From Gammaproteobacteria bacterium (GTDB lineage: Bacteria > Pseudomonadota > Gammaproteobacteria > GCA-001735895): DNA of 64,000 nucleotides. The position numbers were made by a program, and so were the translations under genes. The notes beneath the pieces are model-generated. The model did no database searches and was not told where the DNA came from. It saw nothing but the letters and a program-made list of their open reading frames with translations. The DNA is taken from positions 124,001-188,000 of the forward strand of contig JAOTYD010000002.1 in assembly GCA_029862005.1 (NCBI GenBank), in the 5' to 3' direction. How positions within the stretch are numbered: position 1 is the first letter of the stretch; each line of letters opens with the position of its first letter. This document shows positions 14,418 through 20,704 of this stretch, piece by piece.

Positions 14418-14522
14418 CATTTCAAGGGATATGCATCGCAAAAGGCGCTCCCAACCATGGAATCGCTTGGAGCGCGGCGTCCCTGCCGCGCTACACTTTT
14501 GCGATGCATATCCCTTGAAATG
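14418..14522. repeat. long hairpin repeat A (27-bp perfect arms)
   Basis: The arms are 14418-14444 and 14496-14522, perfectly complementary over 27 bp and beginning CATTTCAAGGGATATGC. The loop contains, on the minus strand, a GC-rich hairpin GCGGCAGGGACGCCGC followed by a CCATGG. Nearly the same loop and the inner CTTTTGCGA part of the stem recur at 20536-20663 with a different outer stem. It may act as a transcript end or as a REP/BIME-like element. Confidence 0.8.
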
Positions 14523-14536
14523 TCTCGATAATCAGG

Positions 14537-14733
14537 AGGCAACCGATGAAGCCCGTTGAGACGTAAAGGCTGGGTGCCGAAAAAGGACTGATTTTAAAGG
14601 GTCAGGCCGCAGGGACGCGGCCTGTGGCGAGTCGAGACATGGATGTCGAGTCTCGCCTTGCCCTTTATAATCAGTCCTTTTTCGGGAAGCCGCAGGCCAC
14701 CCAGCCAGTCTCAACGGGCTTCATCGGTTGCCT
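14537..14733. repeat. long hairpin repeat B (26-bp plus 25-bp arms)
   Basis: Outer arms 14537-14562 and 14708-14733 match over 26 bp. Inner arms 14577-14601 and 14661-14685 match at 24 of 25. The loop holds two tandem hairpins: CAGGCCGC-AGGGAC-GCGGCCTG (14603-14624), and GGCGAG...CATGGATG...CTCGCC. This is the same layout (AGGGAY loop, then CATGGA loop) as the other three hairpins, with different stem sequence. Confidence 0.8.
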
Positions 14734-14786
14734 TTGGTTGAATCGCGACGTCCAAGATATGTAAGGTTTAATTTATCGCTTGGTAG

Positions 14787-15875
14787 CTACTGGTAGCCGG
14801 TGAGTTCCATGTAACCGACGCCGGCGGGATTGCCCTGTTCGTCTTCGACCAGCACCACGCCCTCCCAGTAGGGAATACTGGTACCCATCCACTGCTGATC
14901 GTAGAGTGGCCGAATCTGCCATCTGCGCTGAAGATCGGGCAGGGACAGCTGCCACTCCAGCGGCAACTCAAGCGACTCGTTGGTGCCGCTGGCGACAGTG
15001 CCGATCCGGGTTGAACTCAGATCGATCGCGCTGCGTCCCAGTAGCTGGGTACCACTGTGCGGGCTGATCCAGTTGCCACTGATCCAGTGCTCGCCATCGT
15101 CGTGTCGCAACTGGTAAACCATGAGCTTGTGGCCATCGTTCAAATGCAGCGAGAACCAGTCCCAGCCCTGCTGATTCTCGGCCAGCGCCTGCGAACTCCA
15201 CTCACGATCGAGCCAGCCCTGACCTGCCAGCTCAATTTTCTCATCCCTCCCGGTCACCGTGCCGCTCACTTTAATATGCGGTTGGCTGTAGTAATAACTC
15301 GCCTGTCCCTGGGCCGATTTCTGGCTATAGCCATCAATACCGTTCAGCGCCAGCTCCCCGGTGGCTTCAAGAGCTAATACGACCTGGCGTTCGTCGATCG
15401 TGAAATTGAGCTCCGCCGGAAACAGTGCTGCGCCGGTCGATCGCCACTGCCAATCATCCATCCAGGCATTAAAATAGCCGTCATGACTGATGCGCGTAAC
15501 TCCGGCCTGACCAATCCCGCCGCGCGCGAAACGCTGCTCATGAAAATGGCCTTCAGGTGTAGTTATGGCGGCATGTGCCATCCAGATCTGCTTACTGTGC
15601 CAGCCGCTACCGGTTTTATCAGGGCTCAGTGACTGCCGAAACAGGGTCCACTGCAGGCCCCAGTGCCGACCATCTCGATCCACCAGGTTCGCGGTCAAAT
15701 ACCACCATTCAATTCGATAGTCCGGGTGCGCACCATGATCCCGCGGAAACTCCAGCGTCCTGCCAGGCGTCACCTGGGCATACCCGAGTCCCTGTTCGCG
15801 CAGGTCGCCAAGCACATCCTGGGCCCCGGCTGCGTGGCCAAACAGCACCAGGCATAGCAGCATGATGAGACGCAT
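14787..15875 (-). CDS. AttH-like secreted lipocalin-fold protein (CrtC/COG5621 family)
   Basis: 362 aa from the ATG at 15875, chosen because it gives a clean signal peptide (MRLIMLLCLVLFGHAAGAQ) and overlaps the upstream permease stop as TGATG. Typical family features are PRDHGAHPDYRIEWWYLTAN near the N-terminus, then the QGWDWFSLHLNDG and WQIRPLYDQQWMG motifs. These proteins have two lipocalin-like barrels. They are always linked to an ABC ATPase and an FtsX permease (AttEFGH), with proposed roles in export or processing of a hydrophobic compound. The substrate is unknown. It is the last gene of the three-gene operon. Confidence 0.85.
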   Translation of the reverse strand: MRLIMLLCLVLFGHAAGAQDVLGDLREQGLGYAQVTPGRTLEFPRDHGAHPDYRIEWWYLTANLVDRDGRHWGLQWTLFRQSLSPDKTGSGWHSKQIWMAHAAITTPEGHFHEQRFARGGIGQAGVTRISHDGYFNAWMDDWQWRSTGAALFPAELNFTIDERQVVLALEATGELALNGIDGYSQKSAQGQASYYYSQPHIKVSGTVTGRDEKIELAGQGWLDREWSSQALAENQQGWDWFSLHLNDGHKLMVYQLRHDDGEHWISGNWISPHSGTQLLGRSAIDLSSTRIGTVASGTNESLELPLEWQLSLPDLQRRWQIRPLYDQQWMGTSIPYWEGVVLVEDEQGNPAGVGYMELTGYQ

Positions 15876-18379
15876 CAAACCGTTTCCCCAAGCTGCGCCA
15901 GTGCGAGCGGCATCTGCCGTCGCCATTGAATTGAAACCACCAGCAGGGTCACTGCACAGATCAGGAAAACAACCACGGCAAGCAGCAGTGCCGGTTCGAT
16001 CTTCCACACCAGCGGCATGCTCCAGCCAAAACTGATGATGTTGAGCTTGTGAATCAGGATCCAGCTCAGCAATGCACCGAGTGGAATCGACAGTAGCCAG
16101 ACGACTGCACAAAAAACCAGCAGCGGTGTTGCTACCAGCAACAATTGTTCAAACTGGTGCAGGCCAAGTGCTCGCCACTGCGCAAATTGCGGTAGTCGTT
16201 CGTGCAGAATTGCGAGTAAGGATGCCAGCAACGCAATCGCCGCAACAATCATGGTCAATAAATTCATAGCCGCGGTGATGGCGAAGGTGCGGTCGAAGAT
16301 ACCAATCGACAGCAGGCGAATTTGAGCCTGCGAAATCCAGTCGCCCGGTTGTGCGCCGAGCGCTCTCAGGCTCTCCTCCGCCTGCTGCATCGCTTTACTG
16401 TTGCGCGGGTTCAACCACAACGCGATACCGCGTGAGTAGTAGTGACTCCAGTTACCGGCAACCACGCTATAGGGCAGGTAGAACTGAAAATAAGGATTAC
16501 CGTAGTCATAGAAAACACCAACCACTTCGTATTCCTGCGGCCCATTGTCGGTCGGCAGCACGACGTTTTCACCGATCTCTACCCCGGCCAGGAAATGCAC
16601 CTGTTCGTTAATCAGTACCTTGCCCGGTTGTTCGCGCCAGGTCTGTCGTGCCGATGCGGCCGAGTCACCCTGCCACCGGGACAGTGGCAATTCCTGGCTG
16701 TCCGTGGCGCGTGGGTCGATGCCGCGAATCAGCGCCGGGCGATCGCGCCAGCGCGTGCTGATCCCGATACGATGGTGGCTGTCGACGAGCCAGTCAGCAT
16801 TCGTTGCCGAAGGTTTGAGCATCTGGTAACTCACACCCGGTGTGCGCAGATAGATATCGGCGCTTTGACGCACTTCCAGCCAACCAACAAAGGCATCGCG
16901 AAAGCTGTCAACCAGGCTGTCAACACCGAGATTTGCGGTCAGTGCCAGCAGTAACGCCATCATTGCGCTGCGTAATGCCGGTAGCTGGGACCAGCCATCG
17001 CTCACCATCCAGCGCGCCAGCAAATAACGCTGTGGTAACAGTAGGGCGACGAGGCTTAACGCCCGGGCGAGCAGGAACGGCAGAATCCAGGCCGCGGCAA
17101 ATAAAATCATGCCGAGGACCACGAATCCCTGGGTAACGGTCTCAATCTGCGCATACACAATCCAGGCAAGGCAGGCCAGTACCAGGGCACTGATCGCAAG
17201 CCGGCCGCGAGCGGTCTTCTCGTCCGCGAGCATCGCGTCGGTACTCCCTGCCTCGAGGCTGGAGCGGCGTAACTGGCGGTAAAGCGGCCAGGCCAGCGCC
17301 CAGACGAGTCCGATCAGGGTTATGCTCCAGGCCTGCAACAGCGACCACGTACTCAATCCCAGGTCCGCATCCACGGTTGCGTCGTAGAGACTCTGCAGGC
17401 TGGCGCCAAGACCGGGCAGCAGCGCATGCGCCAGCACTACCCCGAGTACAAATCCAAGCGCGGTCCCGAGCAGGCTCCACAGTAGCGTCTCGAACAGGAT
17501 CGCGGTCGCTAAATGACGCAGATCACAGCCCATTAGGCGCAGATCCAGCAGGGTCGTACGCCGGTACCAGAGCGAAAAACGGACCGCGTTGAAGACAATG
17601 AAGAGCCCGACCGCAAACGACAGCAAGCTCATCGCGGTCAGGTGAGTATGCAGGCTCGCGGTCAGCTCCTGCAGATCCAGGTGCTGCTGATTTTCAACCA
17701 GTTCGAGATGGTCGGACAGGCGGGCTGCAAGCCGCGCATATTCGGCTGCTGTGATCTCGCCCACGCTCAGATAGCTAAAACGGTCCGAGCCGGACAGCGA
17801 CATCGCCGCTCCGATATCGACCAGCACGCGACGACCCTGCTGCTCGCGTGCCTGGATCAATGCGGGCGGTAACTGCCTCCCATCGCGCAGTTCGAGCCGC
17901 GCGCCCGGTTCGAGATTAAGCTCGGCGGCCAGTGCTGCCGGCACCCAGGCACGATACGGAGGTTGTACGAATTCGAGCCAGCTTCGCGAAAAATCCTGCG
18001 TCGATTGCTCGCTATCGAAGACATCGCCGGGTAACGCCAGCAAATCAGTCGCTATCAAGCTGATCGACACGCCTGCAGCGGTGCTGACCTCGAGCTCGAT
18101 AATCGGGAAGACCTGGCGAAAACCGGCACGACGCAGCTCGATATAGGTTGCCTGGTCGATACCCTCGTCCCGCCGATTGCGAATCCAGTAGCTCGCTTGC
18201 GCGCCCAGCAGGTTCTGTGCCTGCTGGTAACTCGTTTCAGCATGCTGGTTGATAATTTGCACCGCCGACCACAGCCCCACGCCTGCAACCAGGCCAATCG
18301 TCAGGAACAGCGTTTGCCAGGGATGCCGCCAGTAGTGGCTCAGCAACGCCTTCAGTATCCAGTAAAATCCGAAATTCAT
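15875..18379 (-). CDS. FtsX-type ABC transporter permease (AttF-AttG fused type)
   Basis: 834 aa. There is one N-terminal membrane helix, a large periplasmic region (about 40-245), three helices (about 250-370), a central helix block (about 390-490), a second large periplasmic region (about 490-710) and three final helices. This is the two-module FtsX architecture of COG3127-like permeases, where other operons have separate AttF and AttG. It would couple periplasmic movement to the ATPase encoded immediately upstream (4-bp overlap) and pass lipid-like substrates to the AttH-like protein encoded downstream (1-bp overlap). Confidence 0.85.
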   Translation of the reverse strand: MNFGFYWILKALLSHYWRHPWQTLFLTIGLVAGVGLWSAVQIINQHAETSYQQAQNLLGAQASYWIRNRRDEGIDQATYIELRRAGFRQVFPIIELEVSTAAGVSISLIATDLLALPGDVFDSEQSTQDFSRSWLEFVQPPYRAWVPAALAAELNLEPGARLELRDGRQLPPALIQAREQQGRRVLVDIGAAMSLSGSDRFSYLSVGEITAAEYARLAARLSDHLELVENQQHLDLQELTASLHTHLTAMSLLSFAVGLFIVFNAVRFSLWYRRTTLLDLRLMGCDLRHLATAILFETLLWSLLGTALGFVLGVVLAHALLPGLGASLQSLYDATVDADLGLSTWSLLQAWSITLIGLVWALAWPLYRQLRRSSLEAGSTDAMLADEKTARGRLAISALVLACLAWIVYAQIETVTQGFVVLGMILFAAAWILPFLLARALSLVALLLPQRYLLARWMVSDGWSQLPALRSAMMALLLALTANLGVDSLVDSFRDAFVGWLEVRQSADIYLRTPGVSYQMLKPSATNADWLVDSHHRIGISTRWRDRPALIRGIDPRATDSQELPLSRWQGDSAASARQTWREQPGKVLINEQVHFLAGVEIGENVVLPTDNGPQEYEVVGVFYDYGNPYFQFYLPYSVVAGNWSHYYSRGIALWLNPRNSKAMQQAEESLRALGAQPGDWISQAQIRLLSIGIFDRTFAITAAMNLLTMIVAAIALLASLLAILHERLPQFAQWRALGLHQFEQLLLVATPLLVFCAVVWLLSIPLGALLSWILIHKLNIISFGWSMPLVWKIEPALLLAVVVFLICAVTLLVVSIQWRRQMPLALAQLGETV

Positions 18380-19044
18380 TCAACCTCTGTCAGCCTGCCG
18401 TTATGCAGCCAAACCTGTCGATCCATAAACTCGGCCATCGCCTGGCTGTGGGTCACCATTAACAGGCTGCTGCCGGCCTGCCTGACCAGGTCACTGAATA
18501 GTCCCATGACTTCGAGACTGGAATTCTCATCAAGGTTACCGGTGGGCTCATCGGCCAACACCAGCTGTGGCTTGTGCAACAGTGAACGCGCGATGGCTAC
18601 GCGCTGCTGCTGACCTCGAGACAACTGGTGCGGGTACTTGTCAACCTGGTCACCCAACCCCAGGCGATCAATCAATTCCGCTTCATATCGGTTATCGAAC
18701 CGTTGGCACAGGGCCGCCTGGAAACGGATATTATCCAGGATCGACAGCGTCGATATCAGGTGAAACTGCTGGAACACCAGGCTCATTTGTGAACGCCGCA
18801 ACGCAGCCAGCACTGATTCCGGATCCGAGTGAACCCGGTACCCGGCAAAGTGGATCTCGCCGCTGTCGGGCCGATCGAGACCTGCGATCAGGTGTAGCAA
18901 GGTTGACTTGCCGCTGCCGCTCTCACCGAGCAGGGCCACCGAAGAAGACGTGCTCATTTCAAACTGGAGCTGATGCAGTACGTCTTGCCTGACATCGGCG
19001 TAATGGTAGGACTTGCACAGGTTCTTGATCGAAAGCATGGCCAT
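18376..19044 (-). CDS. LolD-like ABC transporter ATPase (AttE type)
   Basis: 222 aa. Walker A GESGSGKST is near residues 38-46, signature LSRGQQQRVAIARSLLHKPQ is at about 138-157, Walker B LVLADEPTGNLD follows it, and the H-loop is VTHSQ. The length and SLVFQQFHLISTLS Q-loop match the MacB/LolD class that energises FtsX permeases without transporting through the membrane. It is first in the operon, with the permease frame overlapping its stop. Confidence 0.9.
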   Translation of the reverse strand: MAMLSIKNLCKSYHYADVRQDVLHQLQFEMSTSSSVALLGESGSGKSTLLHLIAGLDRPDSGEIHFAGYRVHSDPESVLAALRRSQMSLVFQQFHLISTLSILDNIRFQAALCQRFDNRYEAELIDRLGLGDQVDKYPHQLSRGQQQRVAIARSLLHKPQLVLADEPTGNLDENSSLEVMGLFSDLVRQAGSSLLMVTHSQAMAEFMDRQVWLHNGRLTEVE

Positions 19045-19153
19045 TGATGCTAACCGAATTTATCAGGACACAATACCTAATATTACGATTTCAGGCCGGT
19101 AATGGATTTGCAAATGGATTCAAGTAAACTTGTCCCGCATCCAGGGGGTATTC

Positions 19154-20299
19154 ATGACCGCGATATGTGAAATCAAGGATTTACAGAAACTGGCGCGGCG
19201 GCGCGTACCGCGAATGTTCTACGAGTACGCGGATTCCGGCTCGTGGACGCAGTCAACCTATCACGCCAACGAGACCGACTTTCAGGAAATCAAGCTGCGG
19301 CAACGCGTCGCCGTGGACATCACGGATCGCTCGGTAAAAACTGAAATGATCGGGCAGGCGGTCGCCATGCCTGTGGCACTGGCACCGGTCGGTTTAACCG
19401 GCATGCAGCATCCCGATGGCGAGATCAAGGCGGCTCGCGCTGCCGAGCGCTTCGGCGTGCCGTTTACCCTGTCAACCATGAGCATCTGTTCCATCGAGGA
19501 TGTTGCCGAACACACCAGCAAACCCTTCTGGTTTCAACTTTACGTCATGAAAGATCGCGACTTTATCGGGCGCCTGATCGATCGTGCAAAGGATGCCGGT
19601 TGCAGCGCACTGATGCTGACACTGGACCTGCAAATATTGGGACAACGGCATAACGACGTCCGCAATGGATTAAGTGCACCGCCCAAGCCCACGTTGAATG
19701 CGGCACTGCAAATCATCAGTCGACCACGCTGGTGCCTGAATATGCTGACCACCAGGCGTCACTCGTTCAGAAACATCGTCGGCCACGCGAAGGGTGTCGG
19801 CGACCTGTCTTCACTCTCCTCCTGGACCGCGGAACAGTTTGACCCGAAGTTATCCTGGCAGGATATTGACTGGATCAAGGAACGCTGGGGCGGGAAACTG
19901 ATTATCAAGGGTATCCTCGACCCTGAAGACGCACGCATGGCGGCAAAAGCCGGTGCAGATGCAATCATCGTCTCCAACCACGGCGGGCGCCAGCTGGACG
20001 GCGCTCGATCCTCGATCAGCGCGCTGCCCGAAATCGTCGATGCGGTCGGCGGCGACATCGAGGTCCATTTCGATGGCGGCATTCGCTCCGGGCAGGACGT
20101 ACTGAAAGCGCTTTGCCTGGGCGCGAAAAGCACCTATATCGGACGTGCCTTTGTTTATGGCCTTGGTGCCAGGGGCGAAGCCGGTGTCGACCAGGTACTC
20201 GACATCATTTACCGTGAGCTCGACACCACCATGGCCCTGTGCGGCGAACGCCTGGTACAAAATCTCGGCCACCACAACCTCCTCAACCCCCCAACCTAA
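19154..20299 (+). CDS. FMN-dependent alpha-hydroxy-acid dehydrogenase (LldD-like)
   Basis: 381 aa from the ATG at 19154, which follows AGGGGG. Family motifs include RMFYEYADSGSW (substrate Tyr), APVGLTGMQHPDGE, FQLYVMKDRDF and TLDLQILGQRHNDVRNG. The active-site SNHGGRQLDGARS carries the catalytic His and Arg, and HFDGGIRSGQDVLKAL and GRAFVYGLGA bind FMN phosphate. The enzyme oxidises L-lactate or a similar 2-hydroxy acid and passes electrons to quinone or oxygen. No lactate permease or regulator gene is adjacent, so the exact substrate is open. A long hairpin repeat follows 16 bp after its stop. Confidence 0.9.
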   Translation: MTAICEIKDLQKLARRRVPRMFYEYADSGSWTQSTYHANETDFQEIKLRQRVAVDITDRSVKTEMIGQAVAMPVALAPVGLTGMQHPDGEIKAARAAERFGVPFTLSTMSICSIEDVAEHTSKPFWFQLYVMKDRDFIGRLIDRAKDAGCSALMLTLDLQILGQRHNDVRNGLSAPPKPTLNAALQIISRPRWCLNMLTTRRHSFRNIVGHAKGVGDLSSLSSWTAEQFDPKLSWQDIDWIKERWGGKLIIKGILDPEDARMAAKAGADAIIVSNHGGRQLDGARSSISALPEIVDAVGGDIEVHFDGGIRSGQDVLKALCLGAKSTYIGRAFVYGLGARGEAGVDQVLDIIYRELDTTMALCGERLVQNLGHHNLLNPPT

Positions 20300-20315
20300 T
20301 CCCGATACAACCACC

Positions 20316-20426
20316 GGCGCGGCCATTGGGTGTCTGTTGCGGGACGCTGCGCGACAGGGATGTCGCGCGCGAGCCTACATGGACGTATTTACGGCGTTCC
20401 CGCAACAGACACCCAATGGCCGCGCC
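20316..20426. repeat. long hairpin repeat C (29-bp perfect arms)
   Basis: Arms 20316-20344 and 20398-20426 are perfectly complementary over 29 bp and begin GGCGCGGCCATTGGGTG. The loop contains GCGCGACA-GGGA-TGTCGCGC (20349-20368), then CTACATGGACG and a small CGTA-TT-TACG hairpin. It shares the AGGGAY loop plus CATGGA loop pattern with repeats A, B and D, while its stems are different. Confidence 0.85.
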
Positions 20427-20535
20427 TCTTTCAATCAGGGTAGTAAAAGGACGTTATAACTATTTAAGTTCGAAAATCTCCAAAAAATCAAACCTGATGC
20501 TACTGGATCTTAGGGACTGCCAGACGAGTATGAAG

Positions 20536-20663
20536 CTACCCCGGGGGAGAGCTCGCAAAAGTGTAGCGCGGCAGAGATGCCGCGCTCCAAGCGATCCCAT
20601 GGATGGGCCAACTGGCGCTTGCGCCAGTTGGGAGCGTCTTTTGCGAGCTTTCCCCCGGGGTAG
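20536..20663. repeat. long hairpin repeat D (25-bp arms)
   Basis: Arms 20536-20560 and 20639-20663 match at 24 of 25 positions, beginning CTACCCCGGGGGAGAGC. The loop TGTAGCGCGGCAGAGATGCC, continuing to CCATGG at about 20598-20603, is almost the loop of repeat A in inverse orientation. It has an extra small hairpin (CAACTGGCGC/GCGCCAGTTG) inserted after CCATGG. The inner stem TTTTGCGA is shared with repeat A; the outer stem is not. Confidence 0.85.
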
Positions 20664-20704
20664 CATTGGATAATGCCAGATGCAGGTTCTGTGAATACTG
20701 CAGG

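What the first reader, a model, noticed from the sequence alone, without database searches (positions are those of the whole stretch)
14418..20663. Family of four long hairpins with conserved loops but unrelated, fully paired stems
Repeats A-D (14418-14522, 14537-14733, 20316-20426, 20536-20663) all have 25-29-bp arms. The interior layout is the same: a first hairpin with loop AGGGAY or AGAGAT, then a second part with CATGGA or CCATGG. The small first-hairpin stems differ but always pair (GCGGC/GCCGC, GGCCGC/GCGGCC, GCGACA/TGTCGC). Such covariation means structure, not sequence, is kept. Similar phrases occur between genes in other gammaproteobacteria, but I know of no established function.
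Basis: seen in the sequence. Interest (0 to 1): 0.7.

Follow-up and report, generated by a model that had tools for sequence, protein, structure and literature searches.

The report
Twin-hairpin CsrA-like docking elements between genes
The four long hairpins belong to one large, multi-copy family of folded RNA elements found between genes in many gammaproteobacteria, each carrying two small loops that look like landing sites for the global regulator CsrA/RsmA at a fixed spacing, on a long stem whose two sides keep being re-copied from each other; parts of the family were known under separate names, but the unity, the strand evidence and the stem mechanism appear new.

Summary
A and D are one subfamily (class 1), C a second (class 2), B a third (class 3 = Rfam TwoAYGGAY). 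The genome holds about 31, 7 and 4 copies. All share a 25-29-bp outer stem enclosing two hairpins with A(N)GGA loops 22-28 nt apart. Class 2 occurs in at least 37 of 185 sampled gammaproteobacterial genomes and has the same core as Yersinia YPAL/RU-2. Class 1 has no Rfam match. Residual mispairs in the stems are mostly G.U, not A.C, on the GGA-loop strand (89 v 16; 51 v 11), so that strand is kept as RNA (or single-stranded DNA). But the covariation is not selection alone: between orthologous copies two-sided changes outnumber one-sided ones and carry the flanks' transition/transversion ratio, and cores lie inverted inside unchanged arms, the signature of template switching between arms. Best mechanism: a twin-site docking element for a CsrA/RsmA dimer, placed mostly at gene ends and often built as two divergent elements so that either strand's transcript carries one sense copy. 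Structure and strand are shown by computation; CsrA binding and function are inferred. A known kind, substantially extended.

The parts
14418..14522 (-). Element A, class 1, read on the - strand; 27-bp arms 14418-14444/14496-14522
   Evidence: class-1 model hit G000:C2:138418-138522 -
14472..14491 (-). A hairpin 1, GCGCGGC-AGGGAC-GCCGCGC (ANGGAN hexaloop)
   Evidence: sequence, fold
14450..14469 (-). A hairpin 2, damaged: CATGGTT instead of CATGGATGG; third hairpin deleted
   Evidence: alignment with 9 other class-1 copies
14537..14733 (+). Element B, class 3 (TwoAYGGAY), outer stem 14537-14562/14708-14733
   Evidence: RF01731 52.3 bits, gathering 43, at 14570-14692
14577..14685 (+). B inner stem plus the two hairpins; stem varies but stays paired between copies
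14605..14622 (+). B hairpin 1, GGCCGC-AGGGAC-GCGGCC
14636..14647 (+). B hairpin 2, GACATGGATGTC (matches CsrA SELEX consensus ACARGGAUGU except one base)
20316..20426 (+). Element C, class 2 (YPAL/RU-2-like), 29-bp arms 20316-20344/20398-20426
   Evidence: R2 model 116.8 bits
20349..20368 (+). C hairpin 1, GCGCGAC-AGGGAT-GTCGCGC
20373..20395 (+). C hairpin 2, GCC-TAC-ATGGAC-GTA-TTTAC-GGC, the near-invariant part across Gammaproteobacteria
20535..20664 (+). Element D, class 1, 27-bp arms 20535-20561/20638-20664
20566..20585 (+). D hairpin 1, GCGCGGC-AGAGAT-GCCGCGC (AGAGA, a described lower-affinity CsrA/RsmA motif)
   Evidence: PMC4066749
20596..20607 (+). D hairpin 2, CCC-ATGGAT-GGG
20608..20631 (+). 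D hairpin 3, CCAACTGGCG-CTTG-CGCCAGTTGG, no GGA

Best explanation
The four hairpins are copies of one superfamily of dispersed intergenic RNA elements: a long outer stem (25-29 bp) that presents two hairpins with A(N)GGA loops at a fixed distance (GGA to GGA 22-24 nt in class 2, 26 in class 1, 28 in copy B). Shown by computation: the shared fold, the strand on which it is kept, the constant loops and spacing, the multi-copy spread through Gammaproteobacteria, the enrichment at gene ends, and the usual pairing of a class-1 with a class-2 or class-3 element in divergent orientation. Also shown: arms change on both sides together and cores invert within unchanged arms, as expected of DNA-polymerase template switching between inverted repeats, which explains how arms can become nearly unrelated yet stay perfectly paired. 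Inferred: the two loops dock one dimer of CsrA/RsmA (this genome has four CsrA-family matches). Read through from a neighbouring gene, the transcript's 3' region acquires a CsrA-bound, nuclease-resistant or RNase III-cleavable knob, which tunes that transcript and together with dozens of sister copies adds to the cell's CsrA-titrating RNA. The divergent unit gives each strand one sense copy, which would make the unit indifferent to its orientation, as its frequent inversion suggests.
For: Copies: class 1 about 31, class 2 seven, class 3 four in the own genome. One superfamily: the class-2 model, built almost wholly from other bacteria, hits class-1 and class-3 elements on the same strand. Covariation: 33/39 pairs, score 0.751 against 0.187 shuffled and 0.15-0.22 when slid. 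Strand: residual mispairs on the GGA strand G.U 39 v A.C 11 (class 1), 8 v 0 (class 2), 4 v 0 (class 3), 89 v 16 across the class (p 2e-13). Loops: A(N)GGA in 74 of 81 first hairpins although these were not in the search pattern, against 12% of shuffles for ANGGA; class-1 loop reads C-A-N-G-G-A-N-G with mainly the N positions free; CsrA SELEX consensus RUACARGGAUGU, ANGGAN hexaloop, two sites 10-63 nt apart, best over 18 (PMC7652899); class-2 hairpin 2 TACANGGAYGTA fits it; the AGAGA exception in D is a described secondary motif (PMC4066749). Spacing. CsrA: four matches in G000; all 28 element-bearing genomes that are at least 90% complete have CsrA, against 118 of 134 others. Arms: two-sided changes 107 v 29 one-sided, ts:tv 1.5 as in flanks 1.64, not about 5.4 as for independent double hits; core inversion inside the same arms in L102/L120 and L100/L138; PMC8794818, PMC8604942. 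Units divergent about 26 v 2. Gene ends: 16 of 27 convergent, at most one divergent.
Against: No binding, expression or phenotype data were available here. CsrA prefers short stems (PMC7652899), and first-hairpin stems here are 6-8 bp and GC-rich. The CsrA co-occurrence is only suggestive (p 0.08). Element orientation relative to flanking genes is unbiased in tandem settings, and about half of class-1 copies have no recognised partner, so many would be transcribed antisense. The G.U bias would also arise if the strand were kept as folded single-stranded DNA. Within G000 alone the class-1 bias is weak (18 v 10).
Confidence: 0.6

Rival explanations
1. Non-autonomous mobile DNA (MITE-like): the fold serves transposition as DNA or single-stranded DNA, and copies have no host function.
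For: YPAL/RU-2 in Yersinia is reported as recently mobile with target duplications of 3-26 bp near dyad symmetry (PMC2229807); many copies with related arms within one genome; orientation unbiased to genes; folded ssDNA would also favour G.T over A.C.
Against: Orthologous sites are mostly occupied in related species with arms that still correspond, pairing is maintained at fixed loci, and the G.U bias is present across loci; no linked transposase: the two Y1 transposase genes lie on contigs 20 and 59, which carry no class-1 element; loops match a protein-RNA consensus.
Confidence: 0.25
2. Bidirectional transcription terminators or mRNA 3'-end stabilisers for convergent genes, with no specific protein.
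For: Enriched between convergent genes (16/27; 21/60 against 41/202 of control gaps); very stable stems.
Against: No U-tract: T content after the 3' arm 0.23 against 0.21 background, and only 2 of 82 loci with a T-run of five or more; a terminator does not need conserved loops at fixed spacing.
Confidence: 0.1
3. The perfect stems are only a mutational product of template switching; nothing is selected.
For: Two-sided arm changes with the flanks' ts:tv ratio and core inversions; mechanism described in PMC8794818 and PMC8604942.
Against: Strand-specific G.U bias, near-invariant hairpin-2 core across the class (partly built in by the search pattern), fixed loop motif and spacing.
Confidence: 0.05

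Closest known systems
Rfam RF01731 TwoAYGGAY RNA (Weinberg et al. 2010, PMC2864571)
   Same: B passes its gathering score; two AYGGAY hairpins inside a long stem; CsrA binding already proposed from a motif match (PMC4333381)
   Different: A, C and D do not reach it; it is not described as one branch of a class-wide repeat family; the outer second stem of B is outside the model
YPAL / RU-2 repeats of Yersinia (De Gregorio 2006; Delihas 2007, PMC2759123)
   Same: The printed RU-2 sequence contains gccaaggatggc...cgagcctacatggatgtatttacggcgtc, the class-2 core; intergenic, multi-copy
   Different: Described as Yersinia/Erwinia mobile DNA; here it is found across the class with unrelated arms and a strand-specific RNA signature
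Rfam RF02770 Ysr224
   Same: A Yersinia class-2 copy scores 126.5 bits; copy C 30.9, below gathering 70
   Different: Modelled on the opposite strand to the one kept as RNA here
CsrB/CsrC, RsmX/Y/Z sponge RNAs
   Same: GGA-loop hairpins matching the CsrA site
   Different: Those are single genes with many sites; these are dozens of dispersed two-site elements with no own promoter shown
REP/BIME elements with RAYT
   Same: Short palindromic intergenic repeats near gene ends, often in inverted pairs
   Different: No linked Y1 transposase, much longer stems, two interior hairpins

Membership tests
RF01731 TwoAYGGAY | Score at or above gathering (43 bits) | tested here: met
   B 52.3 bits; two other genome copies 48.2 and 47.7. 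Not met by A, C, D.
YPAL/RU-2 | Conserved core GAGCCTACATGGATGTATTTACGGCG with preceding GGA hairpin | tested here: met
   C has GAGCCTACATGGACGTATTTACGGCG; published RU-2 sequence read
YPAL/RU-2 | Recent mobility with target duplications | tested here: inconclusive
   Occupied and differently occupied orthologous sites found; no clean empty site or duplication could be delimited
CsrA/RsmA binding RNA | A(N)GGA in hairpin loops, two sites 10-63 nt apart | tested here: met
   A has only one intact site, D has AGAGA in one loop
CsrA/RsmA binding RNA | Physical binding | not testable with these tools
   needs gel shift or CLIP
REP/RAYT | Linked Y1 (REP-type) transposase | tested here: not met
   Y1_Tnp only on contigs 20 and 59, no class-1 element there
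Intrinsic terminator | U-tract after the stem | tested here: not met

The most novel reading that the evidence does not exclude
A class-wide, dispersed, orientation-indifferent CsrA/RsmA docking system at gene 3' ends: paired divergent two-site elements give every read-through transcript one sense copy and collectively buffer free CsrA, while template switching keeps the stems perfect and flips the units.
Probability: 0.25. Interest if true: 0.85.

Novelty: new variant of a known kind. Interest (0 to 1): 0.62.

Why it matters
If right, three separately named or unnamed repeat families (TwoAYGGAY, YPAL/RU-2, class 1) are one RNA superfamily, and a large hidden reservoir of CsrA/RsmA sites exists in many gammaproteobacteria. 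It also gives a bacterial test case in which stem covariation, usually read as proof of RNA selection, is largely produced by template switching, with the G.U/A.C strand asymmetry separating the two causes.

Tried and rejected
Class-2 element against plasmids and class-1 element against phages by distant blastn: no match, so no sign of carriage by these. Arms as target-derived sequence made anew at insertion: rejected, since arms at orthologous sites correspond and the B arms are unchanged in a relative about 94% identical there. Arms as a pure product of selection through G.U intermediates: rejected by the transition/transversion ratio of double changes. Simple cis 3'-UTR element with fixed orientation: not supported, tandem cases split evenly. 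Crude ORF calling was used for gene context; counts there are approximate. A search at phylum level gave hits only in the same class, but how many other classes were drawn is not listed, so absence elsewhere is not claimed.

Full report
WHAT IS THERE. All four inverted repeats exist at the stated places. A scan of 448 kb of the same genome for long-armed hairpins without any motif assumption returned these and their relatives as nearly all of the long hairpins; a scan of 1.24 Mb added a few unrelated kinds. Sorting by core sequence gives three classes. Class 1 (A on the - strand, D on the + strand): arms ending CAAAAG/CTTTTG, core TGTAGCGCGGCAGGGATGCCGCGCTCCAAGCGATTCCATGGATGG... with a third hairpin. 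Class 2 (C): core ...GACAGGGATGTC...GAGCCTACATGGACGTATTTACGGCG. Class 3 (B): about 195 bp with two nested variable stems; it is Rfam TwoAYGGAY (52.3 bits, gathering 43). Model searches give about 31, 7 and 4 copies in the 3.99-Mb genome. Each of the four window copies folds 11-12 SD below shuffles.

ONE SUPERFAMILY ACROSS GAMMAPROTEOBACTERIA. On an alignment of 46 sequences (45 of these and C) 33 of 39 pairs show two-sided changes, most outer-stem positions with three or four Watson-Crick types; the covariation score is 0.751 against 0.187 in shuffles and about 0.15-0.22 when partners are slid. The six pairs of hairpin 2 never vary, but they lie in the search pattern and so say nothing. The model finds elements in 37 of 185 genomes of the class, drawn mostly one per family, often in many copies. 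The same model hits class-1 and class-3 elements on their GGA strand with E down to about 1e-12, so the three classes share one architecture: long stem, two hairpins with A(N)GGA loops.

WHICH STRAND, AND IS IT SELECTED? In a palindrome a single transition gives G.U on one strand and A.C on the other. Without strand-specific constraint the two should be equal. On the strand carrying the GGA loops the counts are 39 v 11 in class-1 arms (18 v 10 in this genome and 21 v 1 in relatives), 8 v 0 in class 2 and 4 v 0 in class 3, and 89 v 16 over 61 class-2 loci from the class (p 2e-13; 41 loci lean to G.U, 5 to A.C). Some copies are related, so the p-values are optimistic, but the sign is consistent. 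This points to the folded GGA strand as RNA; folded single-stranded DNA is the only close alternative. In relatives, hairpin 1 of class 1 often replaces two Watson-Crick pairs by a tandem G.A/A.G (GCGAGGC..GCCGAGC), a motif also noted for TwoAYGGAY.

WHY THE ARMS DIFFER YET PAIR. Orthologous class-1 elements in related genomes show two-sided arm changes far more often than one-sided ones (109 v about 46 over all comparisons with corresponding arms, 107 v 29 over a reduced set). Two independent hits would give a transition:transversion ratio of about 5.4, given 1.64 in the flanks; selection through G.U would raise it further. Observed is 64:43, or 1.5, equal to the flanks. So one mutation is usually copied to the other arm. 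In two loci of the close relatives G000 and G020 the arms and flanks are collinear but the 76-bp core is inverted (L102/L120, L100/L138). Arm homogenisation and spacer inversion are the two known products of template switching between inverted repeats (PMC8604942, PMC8794818). About half of the orthologous sites compared have the element or whole unit in the opposite orientation (read), and the partner class changes between species (class 2 in G000 where G002 has class 3 beside the lldD-like gene). Short-read misassembly of palindromes cannot be excluded for the inversions.

WHAT BINDS THE LOOPS. The only sequence common to the six main hairpins of the three classes is CA-N-GGA-N-G. That is the CsrA/RsmA site: SELEX consensus RUACARGGAUGU with GGA in a hexaloop, RsmE bound to ANGGAN loops, a dimer bridging two sites 10-63 nt apart with an optimum above 18 (PMC7652899). 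Class-2 hairpin 2 is UAC-ANGGAY-GUA. The first hairpin, which was not part of the search pattern, has A(N)GGA in 74 of 81 cases. GGA-to-GGA spacing is 22-24 nt in class 2 and 26 in class 1. The odd loop AGAGAT in D contains a described lower-affinity motif, AGAGA (PMC4066749). The genome has four CsrA-family matches, and all 28 well-assembled element-bearing genomes have CsrA (28/28 v 118/134, p 0.08). A CsrA-binding role was already suggested for TwoAYGGAY (PMC4333381). Against it: hairpin-1 stems are longer than CsrA prefers, and no binding data were available.

CONTEXT. In this genome 16 of 27 class-1 loci lie between convergent genes and at most one between divergent genes; over the class 21 of 60 class-2 loci are convergent, against 41 of 202 control gaps (crude gene calls). 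C and D lie between an lldD-like gene and an acyl-CoA synthetase-like gene that converge; A and B appear to lie between two co-directional genes (names from reading the translations, not tested). There is no U-tract, so they are not ordinary terminators. Where a class-1 element has a class-2 or class-3 partner, the two are divergent in about 26 of 28 cases, counted by hand (orthologs included; test); C/D is one exception. Each strand then carries exactly one sense element, which would make the unit work in either orientation.

MECHANISM, WITH STATUS. Shown: fold, strand, loop motif, spacing, spread, position at gene ends, arm homogenisation. Inferred: CsrA/RsmA dimer binding across the two loops (about 0.6); effect on the 3' region of read-through transcripts and on the free CsrA pool (lower). 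A mobile-DNA reading (about 0.25) remains open because YPAL was reported mobile in Yersinia (PMC2229807); the two readings can both be true.

NOVELTY. B is a known family, C has the same core as YPAL/RU-2 and, on the other strand, Rfam Ysr224; A and D have no Rfam match at the gathering score. What I did not find described is the union of the three, their class-wide spread, the strand test, the fixed twin CsrA-type sites and the divergent units. The library searched holds open-licence papers only, and the original YPAL paper was not read.

Noticed in passing
L025:13871-14019, L107:1683-1806, L124:1265-1388, L144 class-2 copy, L119:1683-1806: A roughly 15-nt mini-hairpin (about GGTCCGACGCATCGG) recurs as an insert at hairpin tips or junctions in all three classes, as if a smaller palindrome nests inside them.
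   Followed up: no
L217:7888-7994 and window 20342-20441: Rfam Ysr224 is modelled on the strand opposite to the one with the G.U-biased, GGA-loop fold; its strand may be worth re-checking.
   Followed up: partly
L168:2600-2864: Another long hairpin with a nested 20-bp stem and core GCAGTCCGCAGGGAATGGCATGCCCTTTACAAGGACTGC, apparently unrelated to the present family.
   Followed up: no
L151:14563-14646, L165:6530-6624, L066:1244-1336: A GTCATCCCGCGG...CCGCGGGATGAC hairpin repeat, present in this genome and at the lldD-like locus of relative G025.
   Followed up: no
L073 end, L074 start, L084 start: Contigs of relative G020 break inside these palindromes, so draft genomes undercount them.
   Followed up: partly
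G402:C1:94418-95646: Six class-2 hits lie within 1.2 kb on one strand in another gammaproteobacterium, a tandem cluster rather than single insertions.
   Followed up: no
G000 whole genome: Four CsrA-family matches in one genome, more than most of the class sample, which mostly has one.
   Followed up: no
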